IMG/VR virus record: IMGVR_UViG_3300047550_000886
Coordinates: 1-22,761 of that record
Source of the DNA: a virus
Direction: 5' to 3' (one strand)
Length of the DNA: 22,761 nucleotides
A program made the position numbers and the translations under genes. Below are positions 1,669 through 22,127 of the stretch, piece by piece; positions within the stretch are counted from its first letter, which is position 1; the number at the start of each line of letters is the position of its first letter. The notes under the pieces are model-generated. The model did no database searches. It saw nothing but the letters and a program-made list of their open reading frames with translations, and was not told the DNA's origin.

Positions 1669-2100
1669 ATGAAGCAAGGGATGCGAGTATCAGGAGTTGG
1701 AGAAGGTGCCAAGCGTACTGATTTGGACCGCGCTAGAAAAATTCAAAGAGAAGCAAAGATTCAGAACGCTACCGGTGGTGCTTACAGAGAACGTACTGAA
1801 CTAACAGAACTTGCGCAAGGCGCTTCAACCGATGTACCACCTGTTAATATTCCTGCACCTGCTGCAGTAAACCCATTAGCAAATCTTGGAAGCACAGATA
1901 TCTTTGCACCGACTGCTAGACCAGAAGAGCCAGTATCTGCTGGTGCTGCCGGAAACTCAGACGGTGCTGGTCCTGATGTATTACCAACCCCAGTAACTGC
2001 CCCTGATCAATTAGCAGTGCTTGCTAGAGCAATGTTTGCTGCTGATCCAACCCCACAGAATCGTAGATTACTAGAAGCCTTCATGCAAGAAGGACGTTAA
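1669..2100 (+). CDS. Unrecognised Pro/Ala-rich small structural protein
   Basis: 143 residues that I do not recognise. The first 50 residues are charged and probably helical (basic, with DLDRARKIQREAKIQ). Residues 55-115 are low-complexity Pro/Ala/Thr/Gly, and the last 30 form a short predicted helix (DQLAVLARAMFAADPTPQN...LLEAFMQEG). There is no signal peptide or membrane segment. The start ATG 1669 has an AGGAG ribosome-binding site at 1659-1663 that overlaps the stop of the protease gene. The stop overlaps the start of the giant gene (TAATG), so the two are probably translationally coupled. Location suggests a head or internal-virion accessory protein, possibly a protease substrate or adaptor for the giant protein; both are guesses from context. 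Confidence 0.75.
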   Translation: MKQGMRVSGVGEGAKRTDLDRARKIQREAKIQNATGGAYRERTELTELAQGASTDVPPVNIPAPAAVNPLANLGSTDIFAPTARPEEPVSAGAAGNSDGAGPDVLPTPVTAPDQLAVLARAMFAADPTPQNRRLLEAFMQEGR

Positions 2101-5100
2101 TGGCTCAACTAGGCGCGGATTGGAACAAGTATAAATACACGAGTCTTTTTGATAAGACAAATAACAATCGTTTACTTGCCGATGCCGTAAAAAACCAAGT
2201 ACAAGGTTTAGATCCAAAAGTAACACAGAACTTTAATTCGCTTATAAATAGATTTCCTAACCAAAGCAAAGACTTTTTGCTTAGTGCTGCTAAGATGGGA
2301 CTCAATGCGCAGAGCGAAGGTATTGAAAAACTAGCATCTGTTGATGGGTTAGCACAACTAAAACAAGATTTAACTAACGTAGATAAACTAAAGTCTGTTG
2401 CTTCAGAGAATAAAGGCTTTGTAAATACGGTAAAAGACGCAGTATACGGTGGACTTAAGGGTGCGTCACGAGTTCTTTTTGCTACATTGCAAGCACCATA
2501 TCAAATTCTTAGTGCTTCTGCCCGTAATGCTTACGGATTAGCACAAGGACAAAAAGATTTTAACTTACTTGAGTCAACTAATCTTGGTCAGTTGGCTATG
2601 GCTGCTGGAAGAAGTCTCAAAGAAGGCACGCCAATTGATACAGGTTCTGGATTTTTTATTGGACATGACTCTCAAGTTGCTAAGGCACAGGCTAAAGCCA
2701 TGCAAGCATATGGCAGAATCAATGACCAATCCTTTACAATTGGTAGATTAGCCGTAAATAGCATTGGTGTTAATCCAAATAGTACGCCATATCGCGTCAT
2801 GTCTGGTATTGTTGACGCAGTTTTGTCAATTGGAACTGATCCTTCTGTCTGGGTAGGCCCTGGTAGCGTCACTAAAATTATCAAAGGTGGAAAAGACCTA
2901 CGACTTGCTAAAGAAGCAGCCCAAAGAACTCTAACTGCTAAAGAGGCAAAGCAAATTGAGGCTATCAAAGCAGAAACTGCGCTCGAAGATGCGCGTATGG
3001 CTGAGTTCCATGGTCAAAAGAAAGATGTTATCAGAAAAGTAGATAACAATTATCTTAAAGCCGAAAAGAATCTTAAGAAAACTAAGCAGTCACAAGAACG
3101 TGCTCGCGTAAGAAACACTGGCAAACAGGTAACTTATGGCTTAGAGCGTAAAACTTATGGTAATGCTAAACTTGAAGATCAACTAACTACCGATTCGGTA
3201 GGTAGATTTGTACTAGATACAGTAGAGTCAGGACAAAACCAGCAAGTTATAAATCAGTTGGCTCAAGCCTCTGCTGACTCCTTTAATACTAAAGGTGCAT
3301 TCGTAGGTATGCACTTTGAAGATGTGCCAGAAGCAGGCAAGTTGCATTACTCTGCTTTTGAAGATTCTGAATTTATTGTTGCTATTTCTGATGAGAAGCC
3401 ACTTGATATCTACGATATCACAACTACTTATGAAAATGCTACTGCAACAGAACGTGCTGCAGAGTTAGAGCGCCGTACAGCATTTTTTGAAGAACTGTAC
3501 CGCATTGTAGATGACGAAACTCTACCAGAAGTAACTCGTAATGCTGTAGATGAATTTATCGGGGCAACTACCCCAGGTAATACCCTACAAAAGATGGCTG
3601 TTGATGATATTATCTTCGGTGAGGGTTCTGAATCTGTAGCACAATTGATTAGACGAGCAATCGACGTAGATAACAAAGACTTGCTTGAAATAGTTATGGA
3701 TTCTATCCAAAAGGCATGGAAAGTAGACGGATTCTCTAACATTCGCGCTGTTCATGGTGGCACTGGTGGAGTTGCTGTTACAAACTACAAGATGTTCACT
3801 ACTCGTCTTGCTGGAATTAGCGATACTTTAAGTGAATCACTAGAAGGACGTATTCCACCCGAGTCATTAGGACGTATGTTTGCTAGCCTACGTGATAGTG
3901 ATCAGCAGTTAGCAGAGGCTCAAAAGAACTTTGAGAATGCTCAGACTGCTTATAGCGCTGTTAATCGTGACCTTAAAGAAATTGAAGTACTTCAAGAGTT
4001 CGTATCTAAAGATCCAGAACTACTTGCTCAGATTATTAACGACCCTGAGAATATCGGCATTGCCAAACTTATGGGTCTTGCAGATAACATTAAATCTGGC
4101 GAATACAAGAAAGAATTCTTACGCTCTGAGGTTGGATTACTAGACTCCTTTGGTGGCTCTCTTAAGGGAGATTTAAAGAAGGCCGCTGGATATGTACTTG
4201 GAAAGCGATTTGCTCAAGTAGCAGATATCGTAGCCCGTGAAACCGACTTTAATCGTATGCATCGTTTCTTTGGTCGTAAATTAGATATTGCTATGGTAAA
4301 GGAGTTGGTTGATGCGACAACGCCTGAGCAAGTTATTAGCATATTCCTTCGCCATCTGGCTGCTCCTACAAGTGATCCATCGGTGTATCGTTCAATGGCA
4401 CTTAGGGGAGAAGCCGCTCTTAACTCGCATAATCCGCTTTATAAAATGGTTGCCCCAGTTGCTCGTAAGGCTCTTCCAATTGTCGAAAAAACTGAGCGCA
4501 ATTTTGGTAGATACTTTTCGCGTTCGGTAGTATTACCTCTTGATGACTTAGACCGTCTAATTAACGGTATCGAAGATTGGATGTCATCTGCTGGTATTCC
4601 AAATAACATTATCGAAGATGTAGTAAATCGACTAGCAAAAGCAGATAGCACAGAGATTCGCTCTGGTATTGTATTCCAGGAGATCGAGCGTGCTCAAGTA
4701 ACGATTGCTAGACAGATTGCTCCTGGGGATACTGCAGTAGAAGAGGCCATCAAGAAAACTTTCCGTGCAACTGGTAGACAAAATGCTTTAATTAAACAAT
4801 ATGTTGCTGAAAGACTTCCTACTAACGAAGTACCACAGGTAGCCATGATTAATGGCGAAATGTTTAAGTTTAACCCTGATCAGGCTATATTTGAATATCA
4901 ATTCCTAGACGACGTTGTTCGTTTGCCTGATACTCGTGATATTAAGAGACTTGTTACTAGATATACCAAAAATAAGGCTAGATTTGGTGCGGAACGCGCT
5001 AGAGATGTATTTAATGACACCTTTGGTGACACCTGGAGAACTGCTCAGTTAGCATTCCGTGCTGCTTATATCATCCGTAACATCGGTGAAATGCAGTTCC

Positions 5101-7856
5101 GTCAGTACTTCTCAGGACATGACACCCTATTGAATCACCCGCTTTCATATCTTGCTATGATTGCTGCAGATTCTGAGGGTGGTGCTTTTAGAAAGTTCCT
5201 TGCTAGAAACGCTAGATATTCTAAAGATGTGCTAGGCAATAGCCTATTGGCTAAAGATGTAAAGGCTCAAAAAGCCTTCTCAAAGGGTATTGAGGCTGTT
5301 TTAAACCAAATTGGTAGACAGCATAACTCAAATGATCCACGTTTTGCTTTCATAGGTCGCATATACGAAGCAGTAACATCTGACCAAAAAGGATATTCTT
5401 TAGCCTTAGCAAACACTATTATGAAGGCTCACTCCGATAGCCTTATTCCTTTAGTTGCTGGAGTACGTACAGTAGAAGTACAAGATGATTTCATACGAGC
5501 ACTTATTGCCGGAGAAGGCAAGTATAAGGGGATTCTAAAAACTCTTATAGAGGGTGGTCGAAATGGTGTCGAGCCACAAGAATTTGCTAGGTTGTTCCTA
5601 AAGGATTCGGTTCCAGTAAATGGTGTATACAATCTTGCTCCAGAAAATTTTATAGTCGAAAACGTAAAGAACTTTATATTTGATGTTAACTCTACTGGCT
5701 CGGTAGAAAGATATATTCAAAATGTTACAGGAACCGGTGCAGGTTCCGTGTATATTCGTGACTTACTTGCTTATGGTAAAACTTCGGTAGATGGTGAAGA
5801 TTTACTGGTGCCTAGTTATGGTGCGATAAAAGAAAACATTAATGAAATTACAGATGTAGATACAGCATTTAAAAAGTCTATAGCCAGAATCTTTACAACT
5901 GAAAAGATGCCAAACGCTACGGCAATCGGTCTTCGTGACCAAGCATTTGGTGCTGAAGATATCAAGTACCTTGATGCTGCTGTTAACTGGTTCTTTTCCG
6001 GCGCTACCAAGGCTGAGAACATTGTCAACTTTGCTCCTGAAGCACAGATGGCCTACTGGGACCATGCTGCTAGATATATTAGCATGTTAAATGATAAAGA
6101 TTTATATGACTTATTGCCTATCGCTAAAGAGGCTTTAGAAGGATTTACCATAGGTGGAAAGCCTATGCGTAGACCTATAGCACTGAAGGTTCTTAATGCT
6201 GAGGTTAAAAGACGTAAAAAAGGTAAGTCTGTGACCGATGGAATTACCCGTGAGGAACTTGATTCTATGGCTGGAAAGAAGGCTATAGAATATACCAAGA
6301 ATCTATTCTATGATGCTGCTAGACAGCGCCAATATGCTAACGCATGGAGAGCGGTATTCCCGTTCGCTCAGGCTCAGTTTAACACGCTTTACAAGTGGAC
6401 TCAGTTGATGAAGGATAACCCAATCCAGTTCTATAAACTAGGTCGCGCTTACAATGCCTTAACAAAAGAAGGCTCTAGCGCAATCTATGATGTTACTGGT
6501 GTTGAGTATGATGATAATCAAGGATTCTTCTATCAAGATGAATTTGGTGAGACTAGATTCCGTTATCCACTTGCTGGAAGCATTATAGGAGCGCTTGCGG
6601 GTAAGAACATAGACTCTGCTCAAGCATTACAATTAACAGCCCCTGTACAGGCTCTTAACCTTGCTTTCGGAGCAGTAAATCCAGCGGTGCCAGGAATTGG
6701 ACCTGCTGGTCAGATTCTATACGCTGCTAGTGGTAAGTCAGCCGCATTTGGTCCTGAATGGAACTTTATGCGTCAGATTATCTTCCCATTTGGTGAACCT
6801 CAAGGTATCCAGGATCTAATATTCCCAGCATGGTTGAAAAAGAGTTTCTTGAACTTCATTAACAATGATGCTCAAGTAGAACGTGGTATTAAAGACTGGG
6901 CTTCTTACTTAGCATCAACAGGTGACTATGGTGATAATCCATTAGCAGATGATACTGCTCGTACCGAGTTGTTTAATGATGCTCGTGGTCTTTCTAGATG
7001 GGCAGGATTCTTTACTGCTTTATTCCAGAATATAGCACCTGCTACACCTTCTCAAGAGGTATTTGCTAAAGATAAAGACGGAATGTTCCGTACTCAAGCA
7101 ATGATTTACAATGCTTGGGATCAAGTTATTAAGAAACATCCAGGTGATTATTTTAAAGCAGTAGCAGAATTCTCTGATACTTTTGGTATCAAGAACCTTT
7201 TGATTATCCTAGGTGGTTCTACAAGAGCAGTTCGTGGTACGCAAGATGCCTGGGCATTCTTGAATAACAATCCAGAGGCTGCTGAAAAGTATGCTACTTC
7301 AGAAGCGGATATCGTTCCATACTTCTTCCCTGGTGGGGAAGCGGCTACCGCTTACTATAACTGGCAGAGACAGGCTGGAAGACGCCGTGTTCTTAGCCCA
7401 GAAGAGTTAGAAGAGCAGGCTCAGAACATTGTCTACCAGATGGCTAAGTCTCAGATATCTGAAGAACAAGCCGAGAATGGTTATTCCAATGTTTGGTATA
7501 CAGAAAAAATGATTAAACTCAACGAGCGCTTTGAAGGTGTCCCTACCGTAAGCGTTCGTATTGGTCAAGCAGAAGCAAGAGCCGAGTTAATTGGTAAGGC
7601 TTTACAAGACCCAGCGTTTAAAGATTCGCCTATCTATGAAGAAACTAAAACCTTCTACGATGCCTATCTACAGACAAAGAAATACTTACAAGAGGTTAGA
7701 ACAACTGCTCAACCAGATTTGTCTAGTACATTCTGGTATACGCAAGAAAAATCAAGAGAACTACAAAGCCTTGCTATGCAGTTGATGATAAAGAATCCAG
7801 CATTCTCGCGCATGTATTACGGTGTATTTTCAGGACTGATTGAGACAAAGGAATAA
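2100..7856 (+). CDS. Giant (1918 aa) virion-associated protein, candidate internal/ejection protein
   Basis: A single uninterrupted frame of 1918 codons, about a quarter of the window. It starts at ATG 2100 inside TAATG, with AAGAAGGA at 2087-2094 as ribosome-binding site. Visible parts: a Gly/Ala-rich amphipathic segment near residues 108-150; a charged, probably coiled-coil region about 270-345; a helical motif RAAYIIRNIGEMQFRQY (987-1003); a second aromatic/helical motif AVFPFAQAQFNTLYKW (about 1418-1433), followed by a Gly/Ala hydrophobic stretch near 1487-1500; and a charged C-terminus. The two motifs remind me of very large polyvalent or internal-virion proteins of podovirus-like phages, but I cannot name a family. 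No lysozyme or peptidase catalytic motif was recognised. Size would suit a tape-measure protein, but the location before scaffold and capsid does not. Structural or ejected internal protein is the best inference. Confidence 0.65.
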   Translation: MAQLGADWNKYKYTSLFDKTNNNRLLADAVKNQVQGLDPKVTQNFNSLINRFPNQSKDFLLSAAKMGLNAQSEGIEKLASVDGLAQLKQDLTNVDKLKSVASENKGFVNTVKDAVYGGLKGASRVLFATLQAPYQILSASARNAYGLAQGQKDFNLLESTNLGQLAMAAGRSLKEGTPIDTGSGFFIGHDSQVAKAQAKAMQAYGRINDQSFTIGRLAVNSIGVNPNSTPYRVMSGIVDAVLSIGTDPSVWVGPGSVTKIIKGGKDLRLAKEAAQRTLTAKEAKQIEAIKAETALEDARMAEFHGQKKDVIRKVDNNYLKAEKNLKKTKQSQERARVRNTGKQVTYGLERKTYGNAKLEDQLTTDSVGRFVLDTVESGQNQQVINQLAQASADSFNTKGAFVGMHFEDVPEAGKLHYSAFEDSEFIVAISDEKPLDIYDITTTYENATATERAAELERRTAFFEELYRIVDDETLPEVTRNAVDEFIGATTPGNTLQKMAVDDIIFGEGSESVAQLIRRAIDVDNKDLLEIVMDSIQKAWKVDGFSNIRAVHGGTGGVAVTNYKMFTTRLAGISDTLSESLEGRIPPESLGRMFASLRDSDQQLAEAQKNFENAQTAYSAVNRDLKEIEVLQEFVSKDPELLAQIINDPENIGIAKLMGLADNIKSGEYKKEFLRSEVGLLDSFGGSLKGDLKKAAGYVLGKRFAQVADIVARETDFNRMHRFFGRKLDIAMVKELVDATTPEQVISIFLRHLAAPTSDPSVYRSMALRGEAALNSHNPLYKMVAPVARKALPIVEKTERNFGRYFSRSVVLPLDDLDRLINGIEDWMSSAGIPNNIIEDVVNRLAKADSTEIRSGIVFQEIERAQVTIARQIAPGDTAVEEAIKKTFRATGRQNALIKQYVAERLPTNEVPQVAMINGEMFKFNPDQAIFEYQFLDDVVRLPDTRDIKRLVTRYTKNKARFGAERARDVFNDTFGDTWRTAQLAFRAAYIIRNIGEMQFRQYFSGHDTLLNHPLSYLAMIAADSEGGAFRKFLARNARYSKDVLGNSLLAKDVKAQKAFSKGIEAVLNQIGRQHNSNDPRFAFIGRIYEAVTSDQKGYSLALANTIMKAHSDSLIPLVAGVRTVEVQDDFIRALIAGEGKYKGILKTLIEGGRNGVEPQEFARLFLKDSVPVNGVYNLAPENFIVENVKNFIFDVNSTGSVERYIQNVTGTGAGSVYIRDLLAYGKTSVDGEDLLVPSYGAIKENINEITDVDTAFKKSIARIFTTEKMPNATAIGLRDQAFGAEDIKYLDAAVNWFFSGATKAENIVNFAPEAQMAYWDHAARYISMLNDKDLYDLLPIAKEALEGFTIGGKPMRRPIALKVLNAEVKRRKKGKSVTDGITREELDSMAGKKAIEYTKNLFYDAARQRQYANAWRAVFPFAQAQFNTLYKWTQLMKDNPIQFYKLGRAYNALTKEGSSAIYDVTGVEYDDNQGFFYQDEFGETRFRYPLAGSIIGALAGKNIDSAQALQLTAPVQALNLAFGAVNPAVPGIGPAGQILYAASGKSAAFGPEWNFMRQIIFPFGEPQGIQDLIFPAWLKKSFLNFINNDAQVERGIKDWASYLASTGDYGDNPLADDTARTELFNDARGLSRWAGFFTALFQNIAPATPSQEVFAKDKDGMFRTQAMIYNAWDQVIKKHPGDYFKAVAEFSDTFGIKNLLIILGGSTRAVRGTQDAWAFLNNNPEAAEKYATSEADIVPYFFPGGEAATAYYNWQRQAGRRRVLSPEELEEQAQNIVYQMAKSQISEEQAENGYSNVWYTEKMIKLNERFEGVPTVSVRIGQAEARAELIGKALQDPAFKDSPIYEETKTFYDAYLQTKKYLQEVRTTAQPDLSSTFWYTQEKSRELQSLAMQLMIKNPAFSRMYYGVFSGLIETKE

Positions 7857-12968: not shown

Positions 12969-13127
12969 ATGCCAAAGGTCGGAAACAAGAAGTTCCCTTA
13001 TACAGCCAAGGGCAAGAAAGCAGCCAAGGCTTATGCAGCGGCTGAGAAGATGGAATCCAGGGCTGAAAAGAAAATGGAAATGAAAAAGGGCATGAAGAAG
13101 ATTGCCAAGAAACGAAAGAGCAAGTAA
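12969..13127 (+). CDS. Tiny Lys-rich basic protein
   Basis: 52 residues, MPKVGNKKFPYTAKGKK at the start, then a Lys/Met/Glu-rich helix and a basic end (KKIAKKRKSK). The start ATG directly abuts the preceding stop, and the stop overlaps the next ATG (TAATG), which argues that this is a real coupled gene rather than a chance ORF. More than a third of residues are Lys or Arg. Nucleic-acid binding or a minor packaged head protein is inferred from charge alone. Confidence 0.6.
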   Translation: MPKVGNKKFPYTAKGKKAAKAYAAAEKMESRAEKKMEMKKGMKKIAKKRKSK

Positions 13128-13297
13128 TGGCTGTAAAAAAGACTCCCATTAAAAAGTCTAATAAAGCCATTAAATCTGATGGCAAAATGACCACTAAAGA
13201 AATTACAAAGATTTACAATAAAGCCAAGAACAAGAAGGGTAAGTATGACCCAACAAAAATTCCAGGCTTTGATTTTGGGAAAGGTACAGGCAGATGA
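13127..13297 (+). CDS. Tiny Lys-rich basic protein
   Basis: 56 residues. Begins MAVKKTPIKKSNKAIKS, contains MTTKEITKIYNKAKNKKG, and ends in a less charged PGFDFGKGTGR tail. It shares one base with the previous gene (TAATG) and four with the next (ATGA). I do not recognise a named family. Composition and the chain of overlapping starts suggest a member of the same cluster of small basic virion or DNA-associated proteins. Confidence 0.6.
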   Translation: MAVKKTPIKKSNKAIKSDGKMTTKEITKIYNKAKNKKGKYDPTKIPGFDFGKGTGR

Positions 13298-13476
13298 GGA
13301 AGTCAAAGAAACATCCAGGATTCAAAGCAGTACAAAAGAAAATCGCACAACGTCAAGGTGTGTCGATGGAACGTGCTGGTGCAATCCTCGCATCTGGAGC
13401 CCGCAAAGCAAGCAAGTCAGCAGTCAAAGCGAATCCTCGTCTTAAGAGAGTTCGCGGAGTTCAGCGGGGTATGTAG
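13294..13476 (+). CDS. Small basic protein with HPGFKAVQKKIA..GVS.ERAGAILAS motif
   Basis: 60 residues. The segment HPGFKAVQKKIAQRQGVS followed by MERAGAILASGARKASKSA and NPRLKRVRG is a type I recall from many unrelated tailed phages, either free-standing or as a C-terminal tail of another protein. Helix-turn-helix-like spacing (KAVQKKIAQRQGVSMERAGAIL) makes DNA contact possible, but no function is established to my knowledge. Starts inside ATGA of the preceding gene and its stop overlaps a GTG start (TAGTG). Confidence 0.7.
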   Translation: MRKSKKHPGFKAVQKKIAQRQGVSMERAGAILASGARKASKSAVKANPRLKRVRGVQRGM

Positions 13477-13619
13477 TGTCATCTGGACAGTATAAGCCAC
13501 ATCGTGGTTTTAACTCCGTCCAGATTAGGGACGGAAAAGTTATTCGCTTAAATAAGAACGGCACCGTAAGGGCAGTACTTGGAAAGTATGGTGAGTATGG
13601 CAAACAAAAGGGATCCTAG
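13476..13619 (+). CDS. Tiny 47-aa protein, GTG start
   Basis: GTG 13476 overlaps the previous stop by one base, the same TAGTG junction used at 9156 and 14682. The product reads MSSGQYKPHRGFNSVQIRDG, then KVIRLNKNGTVRAVLGKYG and a basic end. A beta-hairpin-like middle (VQIRDGKVIRLNKNGTVRAVL) suggests a small folded domain. No family recognised. Its end overlaps the next gene's start by 23 bases in another frame. Junction style is the main support for calling it real. Confidence 0.5.
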   Translation: MSSGQYKPHRGFNSVQIRDGKVIRLNKNGTVRAVLGKYGEYGKQKGS

Positions 13620-13887
13620 GTTAGCAAGAGCCGGAGTCTCTGGCTTTAATAAGCCAAAACGTACTCCTGATCATCCTAAGAAATCACATATCGTGGTTGC
13701 TAAGGAAGGTAGCCAAGTTAAAACGATTAGGTTTGGCGAACAAGGTGCAAGCACCGCTGGTAAGCCAAAGGCTGGAGAGTCCCAGCGGATGAAGATGAAA
13801 CGCAAGTCCTTTAAGGCTCGTCATCGTCGAAACATTGCAAAAGGAAAAATGAGTGCCGCATATTGGGCAGATAAGGTAAAATGGTAA
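13597..13887 (+). CDS. Small phage protein, RFG...RKSFKARH...AAYWADKVKW type
   Basis: 96 residues from ATG 13597; ATG 13588 or a TTG at 13579 in frame are alternatives. The ribosome-binding site is unclear (GGAAAG at 13581-13586 is 10 bases upstream). The body contains PDHPKKSHIVVAKEGSQVKTIRFGEQG and the strongly basic C-terminus RKSFKARHRRNIAKGKMSAAYW. This RFG plus K-SF-ARH plus AAYWA.KVKW pattern occurs in small phage and viral proteins of unknown function as I remember them. It probably binds nucleic acid or another virion protein; that is inference. Ends at TAA 13885-13887, shared with the next ATG. Confidence 0.7.
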   Translation: MANKRDPRLARAGVSGFNKPKRTPDHPKKSHIVVAKEGSQVKTIRFGEQGASTAGKPKAGESQRMKMKRKSFKARHRRNIAKGKMSAAYWADKVKW

Positions 13888-14285
13888 TGGCAAAGAAATC
13901 AATAAAAGTTTCTCAAAACACTATCGATAAAATTAAAAAAATGGGAATGACTGCGGCTCTCAAAAAAGCCGGGACATCTAAGAATGCAGAGTACATTGAA
14001 GGCATCCGCCGTATGTACGGAGAGCGCCGTTTGAGTGCTGCTAGACCTGCTGCTAAGTCGGCAGATGCTGCTCGCGCAGCAGCGGCTAAAAAACCTGCTG
14101 CTAGAAAAGTAGCAAAGTCTGCTGACGAAGCACGTGCTTCTTACGCAAGTTCAAGACCTGCTGCTAAGCCAGCAGCCACAAAGAAGGCTACAGGCAAAGG
14201 CTTGTTCCCAGGAGTTCTATCCGGTAACTACCAGGGTAAGAAGATTACTCGAGGTAAGGTTGTTGGTAAAGGATTCTTTAAGTAA
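13887..14285 (+). CDS. Histone H1-like Lys/Ala-rich repeat protein
   Basis: 132 residues, start at ATG 13887 inside TAATG; an in-frame ATG two codons upstream (13881) is possible. Residues 1-50 form a compact basic helical region (IKVSQNTIDKIKKMGMTAALKKA...IEGIRRMYGERRL). Residues 50-105 are a low-complexity Ala/Lys/Pro tail with a degenerate repeat (ARPAAKSADAARAA, then ARKVAKSADEARASYASS, then RPAAKPAATKK), like histone H1 tails. A short Gly/Lys C-terminus follows (KITRGKVVGKGFFK). Likely role is DNA condensation or charge neutralisation in the head, or a structural tail; inferred from composition. Confidence 0.65.
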   Translation: MAKKSIKVSQNTIDKIKKMGMTAALKKAGTSKNAEYIEGIRRMYGERRLSAARPAAKSADAARAAAAKKPAARKVAKSADEARASYASSRPAAKPAATKKATGKGLFPGVLSGNYQGKKITRGKVVGKGFFK

Positions 14286-14286
14286 A

Positions 14287-14682
14287 ATGTCATACACTAA
14301 ACCAGGTCTACGTGAATCTATTAAGAACCGCATTCTTGCTGGCTCTAAAGGTGGTAGACCTGGTCAGTGGTCTGCTCGTAAAGCACAACTCGTAGCACAG
14401 GCATATAAGAAAGCCGGTGGTGGTTATACCGGTAGCAAGACAAGTAAACAAAAATCTTTATCTAAATGGACTAAAGAGGATTGGGGCACCAAGTCTGGTA
14501 AACCAAGTACTCAAGGCTCTAAAGCAACTGGCGAAAGATACCTACCCAAGAAGGCTCGTCAGTCATTAACTAAAAAAGAATATGCAGCCACCTCCGCTAA
14601 AAAGCGTCGAGATACTAAGGCTGGAAAACAATTTTCAAAGCAACCAAAGTCAATTGCAAAAAAGACTGCGAGGTATAGATAG
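14287..14682 (+). CDS. Small basic phage protein, DUF5872-like
   Basis: 131 residues from ATG 14287, two bases after the previous stop. The frame extends 51 codons upstream, but that part overlaps the preceding gene in another frame and lacks a start context. Contains GGRPGQWSARKAQLVAQAYKKAGGGY (about residues 22-47), KWTKEDWGTKSGKPS (60-74), GERYLPKKA and the C-terminal KQPKSIAKKTARYR. I associate the KWT.E.W.TKSGK...GERYLPKKA pattern with DUF5872; the domain number is from memory. Function unknown; the basic charge suggests nucleic-acid contact. Confidence 0.75.
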   Translation: MSYTKPGLRESIKNRILAGSKGGRPGQWSARKAQLVAQAYKKAGGGYTGSKTSKQKSLSKWTKEDWGTKSGKPSTQGSKATGERYLPKKARQSLTKKEYAATSAKKRRDTKAGKQFSKQPKSIAKKTARYR

Positions 14683-15887: not shown

Positions 15888-17696
15888 ATGACAGTACGTA
15901 AATACTCCTCTCGCGCACAGCAGACCACTCTGGCTTCTGCCATTACAAGCACGGCTTCATCTATGACTGTTGTCAGCGGTGGCGGTGCTAAACTTATGGG
16001 TGGAAAGACCCTTACCGGGTCTGAGACCTATACGGTAGTTATCGATCCAGATACATCCCTTGAAGAAATTCTTGATGTAACGGTATACTCCTCTGGTGAT
16101 ACTTTAACCATTACTCGTGGTAGAGATGGTTCTGTAGGTCAGGCTCACTCAGCAGGTGCTGTTATTCGCCATATGGTTGTAGGTCGTGACCTTCAAGAGG
16201 CTAATGATCATTCTGAGGCTTCTACAAATGTTCACGGTATAACAGGAAGCGTTGTAGGAACTACAGATTCTCAAACTCTTAGTGGTAAAATTTTAACAAC
16301 TCCAACTATTAACGGAGCCACAATTACAGGCACTGTAACATCTAGTGCTACAATTACTGGCGGTACTGTTAACCCAACTACCCTCCAACAGGGCGGAGTT
16401 CAAGCAGTAACCACAACTGGTTCTCAAACTCTTTCAAATAAAATTCTAACAACTCCAACCATAACAGACTTCAGTAATGCTACTCATGACCACACTAACT
16501 CTGCTGGTGGCGGCGCTCTTAGCACTTCTGCTATCTCTGGCATCCAAGAATACATTGAGGATACAGTTGGAGCGATGGTGTCCAGCAATACCGAATCAGG
16601 TATAGCAGTAACTTATGATGACACAACTGGTAAGTTAAACTTTAATGTAGATGATCCAACAATAACTCTTGATGGAGATATTACTGGCTCTGCTACTATG
16701 ACTAACCTTGGTAATACCACAATTACCACGGCTATTAGTTCTGGTTCTATTGTAAACGCAGATATAAACACATCCGCTCAAATCGCTTATAGCAAGTTAA
16801 ATTTAACTAACTCGATTGTTAATGCTGATATCAATGCTTCTGCTGCTATTGAGTTGAGCAAACTCGCCACTGATCCATTGGCCCGTGCTAACCACACAGG
16901 TACCCAAACCGCTAGCACTATCTCAGACTTCAATACAGCGGTTCGTACAAATCGTCTTGACCAGATGGCAGCGCCTACCGCTTCCGTATCTCTAAATAGC
17001 CAAAAAATAACATCTTTGGCTACACCAACATCCGATACAGATGCTTCAACTAAGGCTTACGTAGATACCTCTATAGCCAACTTAATTGCTGGTGCTCCTG
17101 CAACTCTTGATACTCTTGATGAAATTGCTGCTGCTTTAGCAGATACTTCTAACTTCTCAGATACTGTAGTTCTTAAGTCTGGTAGCACAATGACTGGTAA
17201 CTTAGCAATGGGTACAAATAAAGTTACTGGACTTGGTAATCCTACAAGCAATCAAGATGCTGCTACTAAATACTATGTAGATAATACAGTAGTTGCACCT
17301 AGCAATCTAACTGGAGTAATTACCTCTGTTGGTAATGCGACTTCTACTGGTGCTCAAACCGGTACTGGTAATACTTTTGTTATGCAGACAAGCCCAACTC
17401 TTACAACTCCTAATATTGGGGTGGCTACTGCTACCAGCATTAACGGAACTACTATTCCAACCAGCAAAACCCTTGTGGCTACAGATTCAACTGCATATGT
17501 TGTTCCTAGCCAAACAGGTAACTCTGGTAAGTATCTAACCACAGATGGAACTACTTCATCTTGGGCAACTGTAGATGCTCTACCTAGCCAGACAGGAAAC
17601 TCAGGAAAATATTTAACCACAAATGGAACAACCGCTTCGTGGGCAGTAATTACAACAGACCCAACACCAACCGTGTTTATGCTCGGTGGAATGTAA
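15888..17696 (+). CDS. Tail fibre, repeat-rich
   Basis: 602 residues, ATG 15888. The N-terminus (about 1-110) may be the attachment domain (SSMTVVSGGGAKLMGG, then ILDVTVYSSGDTLTITRGRDG). The shaft contains paired fibre repeats: TLSGKILTTPTINGATI and TLSNKILTTPTITDFS; tandem 22-residue repeats from residue 287 (SIVNADINTSAQIAYSKL and SIVNADINASAAIELSKL); and two phage-fibre repeats at about 373-396 and 445-468 (SDTDASTKAYVDTS and SNQDAATKYYVDNT). The last part carries two 26-residue repeats (GNSGKYLTT.GTT.SWA). These are hallmarks of trimeric fibres. It lacks a recognisable C-terminal enzyme or chaperone domain. It probably connects the tail to the tip proteins encoded next. Confidence 0.85.
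   Translation: MTVRKYSSRAQQTTLASAITSTASSMTVVSGGGAKLMGGKTLTGSETYTVVIDPDTSLEEILDVTVYSSGDTLTITRGRDGSVGQAHSAGAVIRHMVVGRDLQEANDHSEASTNVHGITGSVVGTTDSQTLSGKILTTPTINGATITGTVTSSATITGGTVNPTTLQQGGVQAVTTTGSQTLSNKILTTPTITDFSNATHDHTNSAGGGALSTSAISGIQEYIEDTVGAMVSSNTESGIAVTYDDTTGKLNFNVDDPTITLDGDITGSATMTNLGNTTITTAISSGSIVNADINTSAQIAYSKLNLTNSIVNADINASAAIELSKLATDPLARANHTGTQTASTISDFNTAVRTNRLDQMAAPTASVSLNSQKITSLATPTSDTDASTKAYVDTSIANLIAGAPATLDTLDEIAAALADTSNFSDTVVLKSGSTMTGNLAMGTNKVTGLGNPTSNQDAATKYYVDNTVVAPSNLTGVITSVGNATSTGAQTGTGNTFVMQTSPTLTTPNIGVATATSINGTTIPTSKTLVATDSTAYVVPSQTGNSGKYLTTDGTTSSWATVDALPSQTGNSGKYLTTNGTTASWAVITTDPTPTVFMLGGM
16746..16877 (+). repeat. Tandem 66-base repeat in the fibre shaft
   Basis: Two adjacent in-frame units (16746-16811 and 16812-16877) encode SIVNADIN[TA]SA-type segments. 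DNA copies differ at many synonymous positions while the protein is kept, so this is an old coding repeat rather than a recent duplication. Confidence 0.75.
17505..17660 (+). repeat. Tandem 78-base repeat near the fibre C-terminus
   Basis: Two in-frame units (17505-17582 and 17583-17660) both beginning CCTAGCCA encode PSQTGNSGKYLTT[DN]GTT[SA]SWA. Codons differ between copies, but the protein is nearly identical. This motif is common in phage fibre tips and recurs in spirit in the downstream VLTADSST.TGLKW module. Confidence 0.75.
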
Positions 17697-17708: not shown

Positions 17709-18038
17709 ATGCCAACTACATATAAAGTCCTTGGGCAATCAAACCCATCGGCAACAACAGCAACAACCCTATACACGGTACCGTCAGCAACACAGGCAGT
17801 AGTGTCAACCGTTACAGTATGTAACCAAGCAGCAACTGCTGGCACATACCGAATTGCAGTACGAATTGCTGGTGCAACTCTGGCTGCGAGTCAGTATGTT
17901 GTTTATGATGCCAGCCTACCTGCTAATGCAACTGATACACTAACCCTTGGTTTAACTCTGGGAGCAACAGATGTAGTAACTGTCTATGCTTCTAGTGCTA
18001 ACTTCTCATTCGCAGCATTCGGAAGCGAGTTATCATAA
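17709..18038 (+). CDS. Small beta-rich tail-associated protein
   Basis: 109 residues, ATG 17709 with AAGGAGA about 10 bases upstream. The protein is almost entirely Thr/Ala/Val-rich beta strand: TYKVLGQSNPSATTATTLYTV, then STVTVCNQAATAGTYRIAV and LTLGLTLGATDVVTVYASS. It resembles short jelly-roll proteins I recall beside tail-fibre genes in aquatic phages, possibly a fibre-tip adhesin or cap. No signal peptide. It lies between the long fibre and the three tip proteins, so an accessory of host recognition is the best inference. Confidence 0.7.
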   Translation: MPTTYKVLGQSNPSATTATTLYTVPSATQAVVSTVTVCNQAATAGTYRIAVRIAGATLAASQYVVYDASLPANATDTLTLGLTLGATDVVTVYASSANFSFAAFGSELS

Positions 18039-18039
18039 T

Positions 18040-18714
18040 ATGACAATCGGACGTATACCTTCAGTTGAAGGTGGTATTCAGCCGACCATCTTCGACGCTA
18101 AAGCGGATATACTAACCGCTACCGCGGCTGACACTCCAGCAAGACTAGCAGTTGGTGCTAACGACACCGTTCTTACTGCTGACTCAAGTACTGCTACCGG
18201 ATTAAAGTGGGCTTCAGTATCTAGTGGAGGAATGACTTTACTTTCAACAACCACTTTATCAGGAGCAAGTACCACAGTATCAGGAATAAGCGCTTCTTAT
18301 ACACATTTGTTAATCTTTGTTTACGGTATAACAACCGCTGTAAACTCATATTGCACATTCGACCCAAATGCTTCTTTGGCAAATGCTTATTACCAAAGAG
18401 AAAGAAATACTAGTTCTAGTGCTTGGGAGTTAACTACTCAAGAAAATACTCCCGCCTATATTTGGGCACAAACAAACAATAAAGAAAATAATGCTAATCA
18501 AAGTTCAGTAGTTTGGCTTTACAATTATACTGGCGGAACTAGCATTCCAAAAGATTTTAACATTCAGACTGTTTATAGAGATTCTGGCAATACTTATTAC
18601 GCACAATATTTTAACCGAGGAACTTATTTTAATGAAGCGGCAGTATCTTCAATAAAATTCGCAACCGGTAGCACTTTCTCAACTGGAACTGTAAAAATTT
18701 ATGGGGTGAAATAA
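18040..18714 (+). CDS. Tail-tip/receptor-binding protein 1 (shared module plus jelly-roll-like domain)
   Basis: 224 residues from ATG 18040 (two bases after the previous stop); the frame extends upstream but only through the preceding gene. Residues 19-58 carry the module shared with the proteins at 18932 and 20069 (DAKADILTATAADTPARLAV, then VLTADSSTATGLKW). Residues 70-224 are a beta-rich aromatic domain (ASYTHLLIFVYGI, then CTFDPNASLANAYYQR, NYTGGTSIPKDFNI) ending in TFSTGTVKIYGVK, like the galactose-binding or collar-type domains on phage fibre tips. Role inferred: surface receptor recognition. It is followed with a 1-base overlap by a small helical protein. Confidence 0.7.
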   Translation: MTIGRIPSVEGGIQPTIFDAKADILTATAADTPARLAVGANDTVLTADSSTATGLKWASVSSGGMTLLSTTTLSGASTTVSGISASYTHLLIFVYGITTAVNSYCTFDPNASLANAYYQRERNTSSSAWELTTQENTPAYIWAQTNNKENNANQSSVVWLYNYTGGTSIPKDFNIQTVYRDSGNTYYAQYFNRGTYFNEAAVSSIKFATGSTFSTGTVKIYGVK

Positions 18715-18929
18715 TGAATAGACCAATAATTCGTATTCATAATCTTGAAACCGATGAAGTTATTGACAGAGAAATGACTGACGCGGAGTTTGCTCAGTAC
18801 GAAACAGACCAAGCAGCAGAACAGGCTCGTAAAGCCGAAGAAGCAGCCAAAGAAGCCGCTCGTCAGGCTCTACTAGACAAACTTGGAATCACCGCAGAAG
18901 AAGCACAACTACTCCTTGGAGGTAACTAA
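18714..18929 (+). CDS. Small helical protein of tail-tip cassette 1
   Basis: 71 residues, ATG inside TAATG of the tip-protein gene. A short N-terminal strand (RPIIRIHNLETDEVIDREMT) leads into a long Ala/Glu-rich helix (AAEQARKAEEAAKEAARQAL) and an end LDKLGITAEEAQLLLGGN. The end resembles that of the protein at 19788 (LKELGFTEEQITALLGGN). Such short proteins after fibre genes may be assembly chaperones or tip plugs; this is inferred from position. The last codons GGA GGT also form the ribosome-binding site of the next gene. Confidence 0.7.
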   Translation: MNRPIIRIHNLETDEVIDREMTDAEFAQYETDQAAEQARKAEEAAKEAARQALLDKLGITAEEAQLLLGGN

Positions 18930-18931
18930 TA

Positions 18932-19780
18932 ATGGCAACCGGAAGAATAGGGGTTACGCCTACATTCGGAGTTAGATGGTCTAAGGCTCCAGCAGGTGGC
19001 ACCACATCTCTAAGCGGTAATGATGACAACTCAGTCCCACTGGCTTACTCCGTTGGTTATGAGAATGTCTATCGCAATGGTGTGTTGTTATCCCGCGGTA
19101 ATGACTATACGGCAACTAACGGTTCAAGCATTACCCTGGTAGATGCAACCATTGCTGGTGACATCATAGAGGTGTTTGCCAATGTTGCTATACCTTTGAC
19201 TGATACTTACTCTCAGACAGCAGCCAATGCTAAGTTCATAAACAATACTTTGGTAGATGCCAAGGGAGATATAGTAACGGCTACTGCTGCAGATACTCCT
19301 GCCAGACTAGCGGTAGGTGCTAACGATACGGTACTAACTGCTGACTCTTCTACAAGTACTGGTTTGAAGTGGGCTGCGGTTGCTGCCATCCCCGCTAATA
19401 GTTCAGCAACCGTCGCAACAAATCAAACAACTACTTCAACAAGTTATACAGATTTAACGACATCAGGACCTGAAGTTACCGTAACAACAGGAACAAAAGC
19501 GTTAGTAATTGTCACTGCCTATATTGACCATGCTTATGCAGGGGCTGGAGGTTATATGTCTTATGCGGTTAGCGGCGCATCAACCGTTTCGGCTAGTGAT
19601 ACAGTTGCTTTATTTTATCCAATACATAGCCTTAATTACCCACAAGATTTGCGAGCATCTGTCGCAAGTGTTGTAACGTTAACAGCGGGTTCAAATACTT
19701 TTACGGCAAAGTATAGAGTTACCAATGTAGACTCCGTTGGTTTCAAAGACCGCAATATTTTCGTTATTAATTTAGCATAG
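18932..19780 (+). CDS. Tail-tip/receptor-binding protein 2 (attachment domain, shared module, C1q/jelly-roll-like tip)
   Basis: 282 residues, ATG 18932, ribosome-binding site GGAGG at 18918-18922. The N-terminal 95 residues contain VYRNGVLLSRGNDYTATNGS and DIIEVFANVAIP, a type of fibre attachment domain I recall from aquatic phages. The shared module is at residues 109-148 (DAKGDIVTATAADTPARLAV, then VLTADSSTSTGLKW). Residues 150-282 are a beta-rich domain with alternating strands (ATVATNQTTTSTSYTDLTTS, then ALVIVTAYIDHAY, TFTAKYRVTNVDS) suggestive of a C1q or jelly-roll tip. It differs from the tips of proteins 1 and 3, which points to exchangeable specificity. Confidence 0.7.
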   Translation: MATGRIGVTPTFGVRWSKAPAGGTTSLSGNDDNSVPLAYSVGYENVYRNGVLLSRGNDYTATNGSSITLVDATIAGDIIEVFANVAIPLTDTYSQTAANAKFINNTLVDAKGDIVTATAADTPARLAVGANDTVLTADSSTSTGLKWAAVAAIPANSSATVATNQTTTSTSYTDLTTSGPEVTVTTGTKALVIVTAYIDHAYAGAGGYMSYAVSGASTVSASDTVALFYPIHSLNYPQDLRASVASVVTLTAGSNTFTAKYRVTNVDSVGFKDRNIFVINLA

Positions 19781-19787
19781 GAGTGAA

Positions 19788-20066
19788 ATGGCTACAACAT
19801 CAAAAAAAATAAATCTTGCTCAATTAGACAAAGAACTTGGTTCCCAAGGATTGATTGCAGATTTTAATGACCCAAATAATAAAATTATTAAACCAGCGGA
19901 TGGTTCAGGTATAACAGAAGCCGAACTTGAGGCTGCTATTGAGGCTCACGTTGCTGGTCCAACTCAGGCAGAAATTATACAATTAAACCGAGAGCAAGGA
20001 ATTGCCAAGTTGAAAGAACTTGGTTTTACTGAAGAACAAATTACCGCATTGCTGGGAGGTAACTAA
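19788..20066 (+). CDS. Small helical protein of tail-tip cassette 2
   Basis: 92 residues, ATG 19788 with AGGAG at 19779-19783 overlapping the previous stop. The N-terminal half (LAQLDKELGSQGLIADFNDP) is unlike the protein at 18714, but the C-terminal half is an Ala/Glu helical segment followed by LKELGFTEEQITALLGGN, parallel to LDKLGITAEEAQLLLGGN of the first. The final GGA GGT codons again make the ribosome-binding site of the following tip gene. Function unknown, possibly a chaperone or tip accessory. Confidence 0.7.
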   Translation: MATTSKKINLAQLDKELGSQGLIADFNDPNNKIIKPADGSGITEAELEAAIEAHVAGPTQAEIIQLNREQGIAKLKELGFTEEQITALLGGN

Positions 20067-20068
20067 CA

Positions 20069-21148
20069 ATGCCAATAACTAAAGCAAGTGGCAATTCAGT
20101 AACGGCAGCAGCCAAGGGTGACTTGGTTGTAGGTAATGCCACTAATGACTCTGGCGTTCTATCCGTCGGTGCTAACAATACAGTCCTCACAGCCGATTCA
20201 TCAACTGCAACGGGATTGAAGTGGTCTGCTCCTGCATCTACTGGTTACACTTGGACAGGTCGAGCAATTTCCGCCAGCAATATTCTAAAAGTTGCTTACA
20301 ACGGTTCATTATTTGTCGCAGGTGGAAGTAGTGGAGTTCTGCTTACATCAACCAATGGCACAACTTGGACAAGCAGGACAAGTGGCTTTGGTTCTAATGG
20401 CGTTTTTGCAATTATTTACAATACTTCCGCCGCATTATGGATTATTGGCGGAGATAATGGAAGTCTCGCTACATCTCCTGACGGAGTAACTTGGACGCTC
20501 CGCACTTCTAATATGAGCACAAATCAAATAAACGATTTTGCGGATTCAGGAAGCACTATTGTCGGAGTTGGTCGCGGTGGTGGTAGCACTAATACTGGCG
20601 GCATAATTTATTCAACCAATGGCACAACTTGGACAAGAAAATCCCAAACCCCGACTATTGGAACAAGTTACAATTCAGTTGTCTATAATGGGACTAACTG
20701 GGTTGTTGGCGCTAATAACAGCACAAATAATTATCTTTATGCTTCCGACCCTTCCAGCACTTGGACAGCAGGTCAAACAGGTAACAACGGAACGGTAACT
20801 TTTATTGCTTGGGATGGGACAAGACACATTATTGTTGAATCCACTGAATACTATTATTCAACAAGCACTACAGTTGGAACGCCTGATTATATTTATAATT
20901 ATAGTAGCCAAACAATTGGCGGAGAAAGCGTAAAGAGAACTACCAGTTACTACAACGGTAGAATTTATCAGGGATATACTTATCTGACTGATACAAGCAC
21001 AACGCCAACTAGCACCAACTACTGGTTGAATCAAGGTCAAAAGAATATTCCGCCTAGTGGTTCTGGTTTAATCCAGCCAACAGCGTATTTTGTTTGTTCG
21101 GCAGGACAAGTTCTTTTTAGTAATTATATTTTATTTACTTCATTCTAA
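20069..21148 (+). CDS. Tail-tip/receptor-binding protein 3 with Asp-box beta-propeller domain
   Basis: 359 residues, ATG 20069, ribosome-binding site GGGAGG at 20054-20059. The shared module is at residues 14-53 (GDLVVGNATNDSGVLS, then NNTVLTADSSTATGLKW). From about 55 onward the repeated S.[DN]G..W boxes (STNGTTW, SPDGVTW, STNGTTW, DPSSTW) with following strands are typical of sialidase/BNR Asp-box beta-propellers. The last quarter is Tyr/Ser/Thr-rich (SYYNGRIYQGYTYL, FVCSAGQVLF). A sugar-binding or sugar-hydrolysing tip is possible; no sialidase catalytic residues were identified, so binding is the safer inference. Confidence 0.7.
   Translation: MPITKASGNSVTAAAKGDLVVGNATNDSGVLSVGANNTVLTADSSTATGLKWSAPASTGYTWTGRAISASNILKVAYNGSLFVAGGSSGVLLTSTNGTTWTSRTSGFGSNGVFAIIYNTSAALWIIGGDNGSLATSPDGVTWTLRTSNMSTNQINDFADSGSTIVGVGRGGGSTNTGGIIYSTNGTTWTRKSQTPTIGTSYNSVVYNGTNWVVGANNSTNNYLYASDPSSTWTAGQTGNNGTVTFIAWDGTRHIIVESTEYYYSTSTTVGTPDYIYNYSSQTIGGESVKRTTSYYNGRIYQGYTYLTDTSTTPTSTNYWLNQGQKNIPPSGSGLIQPTAYFVCSAGQVLFSNYILFTSF
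20348..20637 (+). repeat. Pair of exact 26-base direct repeats inside the propeller gene
   Basis: An identical 26-base stretch, beginning TCAACCAATGG and ending TTGGACAAG, occurs at 20348-20373 and again at 20612-20637 (spacing 264 bases, in the same frame). Both copies encode STNGTTWT, the Asp box. Unlike other repeats in the window, DNA identity is complete here, which fits recent duplication or ongoing recombination between blades. Confidence 0.85.
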
Positions 21149-21157
21149 GGAGAAATT

Positions 21158-21349
21158 ATGACATTTTCATACACAGTAACCGATGATTTCAAAGTCATCT
21201 TAAAATCAAATGGCAATAACATAGATGAAGTAGGTCCTTTCGATTCACAAGAAGGGGCTAACATCTGGGGAACGGCAGTATGCGAGAAATACAACGCGCC
21301 GGAATATGCCGAAGTCGAGTATCCAAACAGTTTACCAGAAGAAAACTAA
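21158..21349 (+). CDS. Small acidic-aromatic phage protein after tip protein 3
   Basis: 63 residues, ATG 21158 with AAGGAGA overlapping the stop of the propeller gene. Reads MTFSYTVTDDFKVILKSNG, then DEVGPFDSQEGANIWGTAVC and YNAPEYAEVEYP. A compact beta-hairpin plus helix fold is likely. I recall similar small proteins near phage tail-fibre genes, without function. It occupies the place of the small helical proteins after tips 1 and 2 but has no sequence likeness to them. Confidence 0.65.
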   Translation: MTFSYTVTDDFKVILKSNGNNIDEVGPFDSQEGANIWGTAVCEKYNAPEYAEVEYPNSLPEEN

Positions 21350-21365: not shown

Positions 21366-22127
21366 ATGATAAAAGAAACTGAGACAGTAAGTATCGGCTG
21401 GTGCGATAACGGACTAGCCGATGGTAAGTTTGCAGAGGGATTGCTAGGTGTAACCTTGGCAGCCCCTAGCAATGGTATGAAGATTAGCCACAGTGTTCGT
21501 GTGGCTGGTAATCAGATCAGCCGTCAACGCCAAAGACTATTGGACCATTGGTATGACAAGAACTTATCTGACTGGTTACTTTGGATAGATAGCGATATAG
21601 TTCTAAACATAGATGCTTTGTATTTACTATGGCACGCAGCAGACTCTGAGACAGCACCAATAGTGAGCGGTGTTTATTTCATCTCTAAAGAGCCAGAGGG
21701 CACGACAATGCGCCCATTTCCTTGTGTATTCAAAGATTTAGGTAATCACGAGATTCAGTATCTACATCCACTTCCTGAGATGGAACTGGTTGATTGTGAC
21801 TTGGCTGGCTTCGGTATCTTGATGATGCACCGAAGTGTAGTTGAGAAAATGCGTGAGGCTTTGCCTAATGAAGGATTCTTTAATGAGCAAGTCGGCACAG
21901 GTAAAGATGACGAGTTTGTAGGCGAAGATATAATCTTCTTCCGTAAAATGAAGAAGGCAGGCATACAACTTAAGGCACACACTGGTGCTCTAGTCAAACA
22001 CATGAAACGATTTAGTCTTGATTTTGGATATTACGCTCTTTATTGGTCTATGGAGCACATTAAAGATCAGATGAGAGAGCAAGCAGAAAAGAAAAAGCCA
22101 GGGAAACTCTGGACTCCACCAAGATAA
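21366..22127 (+). CDS. GT-A-type glycosyltransferase
   Basis: 253 residues, ATG 21366 with GGGG at 21357-21360. A WIDSDI motif at residues 73-78 is the DxD that binds metal and nucleotide-sugar in GT-A enzymes. Upstream are IGWCDNGLADGKFAEG and GNQISRQRQRLLDHW, and downstream HPLPEMELVDCDLAGFGILM, VGEDIIFFRKMK (G186-E187-D188) and H205/H212 in the HTGALVKHMKRF segment, a His that could complete metal binding. No signal peptide or membrane anchor, so it acts in the host cytoplasm. Encoded among tail genes, it may glycosylate tail or capsid proteins or modify host sugars; substrate is unknown. I recall near relatives in several phage groups. Confidence 0.85.
   Translation: MIKETETVSIGWCDNGLADGKFAEGLLGVTLAAPSNGMKISHSVRVAGNQISRQRQRLLDHWYDKNLSDWLLWIDSDIVLNIDALYLLWHAADSETAPIVSGVYFISKEPEGTTMRPFPCVFKDLGNHEIQYLHPLPEMELVDCDLAGFGILMMHRSVVEKMREALPNEGFFNEQVGTGKDDEFVGEDIIFFRKMKKAGIQLKAHTGALVKHMKRFSLDFGYYALYWSMEHIKDQMREQAEKKKPGKLWTPPR

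What the first reader, a model, noticed from the sequence alone, without database searches (positions are those of the whole stretch)
18040..21349. Triplicated tail-tip cassette: shared 40-residue module, three different tips
The proteins at 18040, 18932 and 20069 all carry a module ending VLTADSST.TGLKW (at 18094-18213, 19256-19375 and 20108-20227) joined to unlike C-terminal domains: beta sandwich-like, C1q/jelly-roll-like and Asp-box propeller. Each is followed by a small gene. This looks like an array for carrying or exchanging several receptor specificities within one tail.
Basis: partly seen in the sequence, partly recalled or inferred. Interest (0 to 1): 0.7.

Follow-up and report, generated by a model that had tools for sequence, protein, structure and literature searches.

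The report
Three-slot array of swappable phage tips
A virus of freshwater actinobacteria carries three neighbouring genes for small tip proteins that share one short joint, and in its relatives the tips beyond that joint, each with a matching small partner gene, are swapped between slots and between viruses, which suggests a plug-in system for changing which bacterial surface the virus binds.

Summary
Genes 18040-18714, 18932-19780 and 20069-21148 share a ~44-residue module and end in unlike domains: a ConA/galectin-like beta-sandwich, a TNF/C1q-like jelly roll and an Asp-box (propeller-type) domain. Each is followed by a small gene.

In 53 array proteins the nearest module lies in the same slot 50 times; the nearest tip does so only 20 times, which is chance. 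DNA homology stops near the module's end in 450 of 457 related pairs. One pair with 99.2% identical DNA downstream has different tips in slots 2 and 3. Against relative L085 the whole array is replaced between 18029 and 21355.

Its N-part is tip-specific, its C-tail common, and its last codons usually carry the Shine-Dalgarno site of the next slot. In some relatives this position holds a recognised tail-assembly chaperone (PF16778). The exchanged unit is tip plus cognate partner.

The locus matches the host-recognition island reported for cultured Planktophila phages. New variant of a known kind. Receptor binding and presence of all three tips in one virion are untested.

The parts
15888..17696 (+). 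Tail fibre (602 aa); its second half begins the variable region
   Evidence: PHROG tail fiber match, E 2e-26. Relative L098 is 97.7% identical in DNA up to 16802, then diverges.
17709..18038 (+). Conserved 109-aa gene before the array; role unknown
   Evidence: Weak PHROG tail fiber match; present before slot 1 in many relatives at 70-91% identity.
18040..18714 (+). Slot 1 tip protein (224 aa), tip family T0, ConA/galectin-like beta-sandwich from residue 64
   Evidence: AlphaFold model, mean pLDDT 80.5; VIA-align Z up to 9.1.
18088..18219 (+). Shared module, slot 1 copy
   Evidence: Profile match; 79% DNA identity to the slot 2 copy over 108 nt.
18714..18929 (+). Small partner gene of slot 1 (71 aa); its last codons (GGA GGT AAC) carry the likely Shine-Dalgarno site of slot 2
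   Evidence: Follows T0 tips in 107 of 110 cases; SD count; sequence.
18932..19780 (+). Slot 2 tip protein (282 aa): ~100-aa slot N-terminus, module, tip family T4, TNF/C1q-like
   Evidence: PHROG tail fiber and minor tail protein matches; model and fold matches, Z up to 8.7.
19250..19381 (+). Shared module, slot 2 copy
   Evidence: Profile match.
19788..20066 (+). Small partner gene of slot 2 (92 aa); N-part specific to T4 tips, common C-tail ending LLGGN
   Evidence: Its N-part follows 52 of 111 T4-type tips and no T0 tip; two-part analysis.
20069..21148 (+). Slot 3 tip protein (359 aa), tip family T6 with three Asp-boxes
   Evidence: Three boxes, none of 5000 shuffles reaches three; relatives L146, L147, L149, L084.
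20102..20233 (+). Shared module, slot 3 copy
   Evidence: Profile match.
21158..21349 (+). Small partner gene of slot 3 (63 aa)
   Evidence: The same small family follows the related propeller tips in L146 and L147 although these sit in another gene context.
21366..22127 (+). Glycosyltransferase gene, conserved right flank of the variable region
   Evidence: PHROG match E 9e-92; 89-95% identical in L084 and L085, whose tips differ.

Best explanation
The locus is a receptor-binding array with fixed slots and exchangeable cassettes. Each slot is an address (its N-terminus plus the 5' half of the module) that stays with its place in the genome. The 3' half of the module, VLTADSSTATGLKW, is the joint. 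Beyond it come a separately folded tip domain and then a small gene whose N-part is specific to that tip and whose C-tail is common. I propose that the small protein is the tip's assembly chaperone or cap: its N-part recognises the tip and its tail does a job common to all; in the DNA the end of the small gene also carries the ribosome-binding site of the next slot. Recombination between co-infecting phages, with crossovers at the joint and in the 3' part of the small gene, replaces tip and matching partner together, so that a swapped tip still folds and the next gene is still translated. Shown here: slots, joint, tip exchange between slots and phages, coupling of tip to small gene, SD placement, predicted tip folds. 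Inferred: that the tips bind host surface structures, that the small proteins are chaperones, that all three tips sit on one virion, and that homologous recombination is the route.
For: Slots stable, tips mobile: nearest module in the same slot 50/53, nearest tip 20/53, chance 0.35. Breaks at the module end in 450/457 pairs, median +25 nt. L077/L156: 99.2% identical over 2.7 kb downstream, different tips in slots 2 and 3, slot 2 break 1 nt after the module, resumption 48 nt before the small-gene stop. Module 5' half slot-specific, 3' half common. Whole array replaced against L085 between 18029 and 21355. Small-gene N-part follows tip, C-tail is common; T0 partner after 107/110 T0 tips, no crossed combination of the tip-specific N-parts. 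Same position holds PF16778 Phage_tail_APC in some arrays, E 4e-17. SD-like site at the small-gene end in 34/36 when another module gene follows, 15/99 otherwise. Tip folds lectin-like or TNF/C1q-like. Position equals the reported host-recognition island of Planktophila phages.
Against: No binding, expression or virion data. Nearly all relatives are metagenome contigs. The window's own small genes match no chaperone family. Pairs in the counts are not independent, and tip families come from single-linkage clustering. The T4-type tips of many distant contigs lack the partner gene.
Confidence: 0.72

Rival explanations
1. The three proteins are parts of one fixed branched adhesion complex, each with its own structural role, and the shared module is an assembly domain rather than an exchange joint.
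For: Slot order and slot N-termini are conserved, as expected if each slot has its own docking place; Ackermannviridae spikes form such a complex (PMC11414711).
Against: Tips are exchanged between slots at random, so no slot needs a particular tip. A branched complex with exchangeable tips is compatible with my explanation; only a fixed set is excluded.
Confidence: 0.12
2. The apparent swaps are assembly chimeras: the module is repeated within genomes, so metagenome assemblers may join wrong tips at it.
For: Relatives are metagenome contigs and the breaks coincide with a repeated stretch.
Against: The same three-slot arrangement recurs in contigs from several metagenomes (L010, L011, L012, L014; L024, L026, L027). 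A misjoin at the module would be followed by the wrong small gene or slot only by chance, yet tip and small gene stay coupled and the slot-specific 5' halves are kept. The two cultured relatives have a tip array at the same position.
Confidence: 0.06
3. Tips stay in their slots and simply diverge very fast, without exchange.
For: Most T0 tips are under 50% identical to each other, so fast divergence certainly occurs.
Against: Tips of different families sit behind near-identical N-termini (98% N-terminus and module, 20% tip); nearest tips lie in other slots as often as chance predicts, and one cross-slot pair is 60% identical.
Confidence: 0.04
4. The proteins are head fibres or head decorations, not tail tips.
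For: The upstream fibre gene also matches a head-decoration PHROG (phrog_2647).
Against: Slot 2 matches PHROGs annotated tail fiber and minor tail protein; the genes lie between the presumed connector and a large late gene; the slot 2 fold also matches a lactococcal phage receptor-binding head domain (Z 7.5).
Confidence: 0.06

Closest known systems
Tail fibre plus assembly chaperone exchanged together (T4 gp37/gp38, Mu S/U, lambda Stf/Tfa from general knowledge; Alteromonas phages A5 and V22, PMC10579305)
   Same: A variable distal receptor-binding part followed by its own small helper gene, transferred together between distant phages.
   Different: Three tips in a row with a common joint, tips moving between slots, and helpers that are themselves two-part: tip-specific N-part and common C-tail.
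Ackermannviridae branched tail-spike complex (TSP1-4, PMC11414711)
   Same: Several different receptor-binding proteins encoded together, conserved N-terminal parts, exchangeable distal parts.
   Different: Here the proteins are short (224-359 aa), no XD/gp10-like domain was recognised by Pfam, and each has a small partner gene.
Variable host-recognition island of cultured Planktophila phages E7 and F5 (Kavagutti et al. 2023, PMC10202952)
   Same: Same position after the tail fibre; related capsid protein (77%); their beta-sandwich tips are homologous to the slot 1 tip (99.5%, E 3e-22).
   Different: Their tips lack the joint module and the slot architecture; the paper describes the island but not a slot, joint or partner-gene design.
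Domain shuffling in phage receptor-binding proteins (Smug et al. 2023, PMC10684548)
   Same: Conserved N-terminal part, exchangeable C-terminal domain, recent recombination.
   Different: That survey concerns single proteins; here slot, joint, tip and partner gene form one repeated design.

Membership tests
Tail fibre / assembly chaperone pair | Small gene directly downstream of the tip gene | tested here: met
   All three window genes and nearly all relatives.
Tail fibre / assembly chaperone pair | Helper is specific to and exchanged with the tip | tested here: met
Tail fibre / assembly chaperone pair | Sequence match of the window's small genes to a known chaperone family | tested here: not met
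   No Pfam or PHROG match above noise for the three window genes; in some relatives the same position holds PF16778.
Tail fibre / assembly chaperone pair | Chaperone activity on the tip | not testable with these tools
   Needs expression experiments.
Branched multi-spike complex (Ackermannviridae type) | Several distinct receptor-binding genes in tandem | tested here: met
Branched multi-spike complex (Ackermannviridae type) | gp10-like XD domains that link the spikes | tested here: inconclusive
   No Pfam match in the three proteins; the N-terminal parts were modelled with low confidence.
Diversity-generating retroelement | Reverse transcriptase in the genome | tested here: not met
   PF00078 absent in 13 records, some of them fragments.
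Invertible tail-fibre segment (Mu/P1 type) | Serine invertase and inverted silent copies | tested here: not met
   PF00239 absent in 13 records; 221 of 221 module frames on one strand.
ConA/galectin-like beta-sandwich (slot 1 tip) | Two-sheet sandwich fold | tested here: met
   VIA-align Z up to 9.1, rmsd 3.0-3.9, 119 residues; all listed rows are this kind of sandwich or plausible relatives. Sugar binding not tested.
TNF/C1q-like domain (slot 2 tip) | Jelly-roll fold of the TNF/C1q type | tested here: met
   Z 8.7, rmsd 2.6, 105 residues with TNF-like lectin PLTL; most listed rows are TNF-like. Tip modelled at moderate confidence.
Asp-box beta-propeller (slot 3 tip) | Repeated S-x-D/N-G-x-T-W boxes in a propeller fold | tested here: inconclusive
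   Three boxes; no Pfam match above cut-off; fold not predicted.

The most novel reading that the evidence does not exclude
Phages of the most abundant freshwater bacteria share a common plug-board: fixed slots and a standard joint, with a pool of tips, each carried with its own chaperone half, that is drawn on by phages of different genera. The small proteins would be a new two-part chaperone type with a swappable recognition half and a constant tail.
Probability: 0.35. Interest if true: 0.7.

Novelty: new variant of a known kind. Interest (0 to 1): 0.55.

Why it matters
Freshwater Nanopelagicales are thought to owe their microdiversity to phage predation, and their cultured phages were reported to have a variable host-recognition island of unknown make-up (PMC10202952). 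This gives such an island an anatomy (slots, joint, tip, partner gene) and shows that tip and partner are exchanged as a unit. It makes testable which tips set host range, whether the partner is a chaperone, and how often slots are re-equipped in lakes.

Tried and rejected
Diversity-generating retroelement and invertible segment: no enzymes, no inverted copies. Common origin of the VLTADSS joint and the PSQTGNSGKYLTTNG repeats in the upstream fibre: profile comparison inconclusive. Sequence searches of the Protein Data Bank with the tip profiles gave nothing useful; the 'Pizza' propeller hits for the slot 2 profile are 15-residue repeats and judged artefacts. Pfam finds no domain above cut-off in the three tips or in the window's small genes. 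The slot 1 small protein has no match in named phages. Foldseek's top PDB rows for the slot 1 tip (large viral spikes, TM about 0.3) are not used; only the VIA-align second look is. A literature search for multiple modular tail spikes gave the Ackermannviridae paper but no description of this array.

Full report
What is there. The window is a 22.8-kb virus record with structural genes of a tailed phage: portal, an HslV-like peptidase, scaffold, major capsid protein, a 309-aa gene of unknown PHROG that I take for the connector, a 602-aa tail fibre, a 109-aa gene, the array, a glycosyltransferase, and a further gene running off the end. Its capsid protein is 77% identical to that of the cultured Planktophila phages E7 and F5. 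Of 12 other records examined, 11 carry WhiB, an actinobacterial marker. So the host is most likely a freshwater actinobacterium.

The observation. Three genes share a module of about 44 residues that ends in VLTADSS-T-TGLKW and continue into unlike domains. Each is followed by a small gene.

Folds. The slot 1 tip is modelled as a beta-sandwich beginning at residue 64, just after the module; the best structural matches are the C-terminal sandwich domains of GH32 enzymes (Z 9.1) and galectins (Z about 8). The slot 2 tip is a TNF/C1q-like jelly roll; the best matches are the TNF-like lectins PLTL and BC2L-C (Z 8.7 and 8.6), and a lactococcal phage receptor-binding head is also listed (Z 7.5). The slot 3 tip has three Asp-boxes 42-46 residues apart; none of 5000 shuffles reached three. 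Its fold was not predicted. These Z values are modest, and a shared fold does not show function.

Exchange. Relatives were collected from IMG/VR. A profile of the module found 149 distinct module-bearing proteins, and 58 loci with two or more, some of them overlapping copies of one contig. In the arrays the order is fixed: slot 1, slot 2 with its ~100-aa N-terminal domain, slot 3 with a short N-terminus. The tips are not fixed: families T0, T1 and T2 occur in more than one slot. For 53 array proteins the nearest module from another locus lies in the same slot 50 times, whereas the nearest tip does so 20 times, as expected by chance. Among slot 2 pairs with N-termini at least 75% identical, 80 of 100 have tips below 35% identity. 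At DNA level homology stops a median of 25 nt past the module in 450 of 457 pairs with similar upstream DNA (pairs are not independent).

Cleanest cases. L077 and L156 are 99.2% identical over 2.7 kb downstream of the array, yet slots 2 and 3 hold different tips; the slot 2 break is 1 nt after the module and similarity resumes 48 nt before the end of the small gene. Against L085 the window is homologous up to 18029 and again from 21355, so the whole array is replaced. L098 is 97.7% identical to the window over 7.9 kb and diverges inside the fibre gene at 16802, so the variable region starts there.

The joint. The 5' half of the module is slot-specific (72% DNA identity within slots, 50% between); the 3' half is common (75% and 70%); beyond the tryptophan the difference is gone (55% and 53%) (31 proteins). 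Crossovers therefore most likely fall in the 3' half or just after it.

The small genes. Their family follows the tip, not the slot. For small proteins of T0, T1, T2 and T4 tips the N-part is similar when the tip family is the same and the slot differs (normalised score 0.31) and unrelated when the slot is the same and the tip differs (0.015); the C-tail is similar in both cases (0.57 and 0.51). In a larger set the T0 partner follows 107 of 110 T0 tips, the N-part of the T4 partner follows 52 of 111 T4-type tips, and crossed combinations of the tip-specific N-parts are zero; the T4-type domains without it lie mostly in more distant contigs, often in tandem copies. In some arrays the same position holds PF16778, a tail assembly chaperone family, E 4e-17. 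When another module gene follows, 34 of 36 small genes have a Shine-Dalgarno-like site in their last 21 nt, against 15 of 99 otherwise; this fits the ..LGGN ending, coded by GGAGGTAAC in the window.

Mechanism. Shown: fixed slots, common joint, mobile tip-plus-partner cassettes, SD placement. Inferred: receptor binding, chaperone role, joint presence in one virion, homologous recombination as the route. No reverse transcriptase or serine recombinase was found in 13 records, and no module gene is inverted.

What is known. Kavagutti et al. [quoted passage not shown] That island lies at the same position, and its beta-sandwich tips, aligned with those of L084 and L085, are homologous to T0 (probability 99.5%, E 3e-22). 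Fibre-chaperone co-transfer is known (PMC10579305), as are multi-spike arrays with conserved N-termini (PMC11414711) and domain shuffling (PMC10684548). The slot-joint-tip-partner design with cross-slot exchange and two-part partners was not found described in these searches; hence a new variant of a known kind.

Limits. Almost all relatives are metagenome contigs; tip families were made by single linkage; slot labels rest on position and N-terminus; there are no functional data.

Noticed in passing
window 1088-1660: Proteasome/HslV-like peptidase next to the portal gene (PHROG HslV family E 8e-28, Pfam Proteasome 4e-6); possibly the capsid maturation protease.
   Followed up: partly
window 2100-7856: A 1918-aa protein with almost no database match; no tape-measure gene was recognised, so this may be an internal virion protein of a short-tailed phage.
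   Followed up: no
window 12969-14682: A run of small lysine/arginine-rich proteins of unknown role between capsid and connector genes.
   Followed up: no
window 15888-17696: A stretch of the fibre gene (about 109 nt) is 82% identical in DNA to Rhodococcus phages Francesca and Dorin and 71% to Gordonia phages.
   Followed up: no
L084 6898-8520, L085 6998-9732, L264 6253-9579: Sister phages carry another kind of array at the same position: module-less beta-sandwich tips, Gly-rich tips and a propeller joined to a PSQTGNSGKYLTTNG repeat.
   Followed up: partly
window 17709-18038; L165, L171, L172: The 109-aa gene before the array is 84-91% identical in phages whose connector is only 39-59% identical, suggesting that the array region as a whole moves between lineages.
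   Followed up: partly
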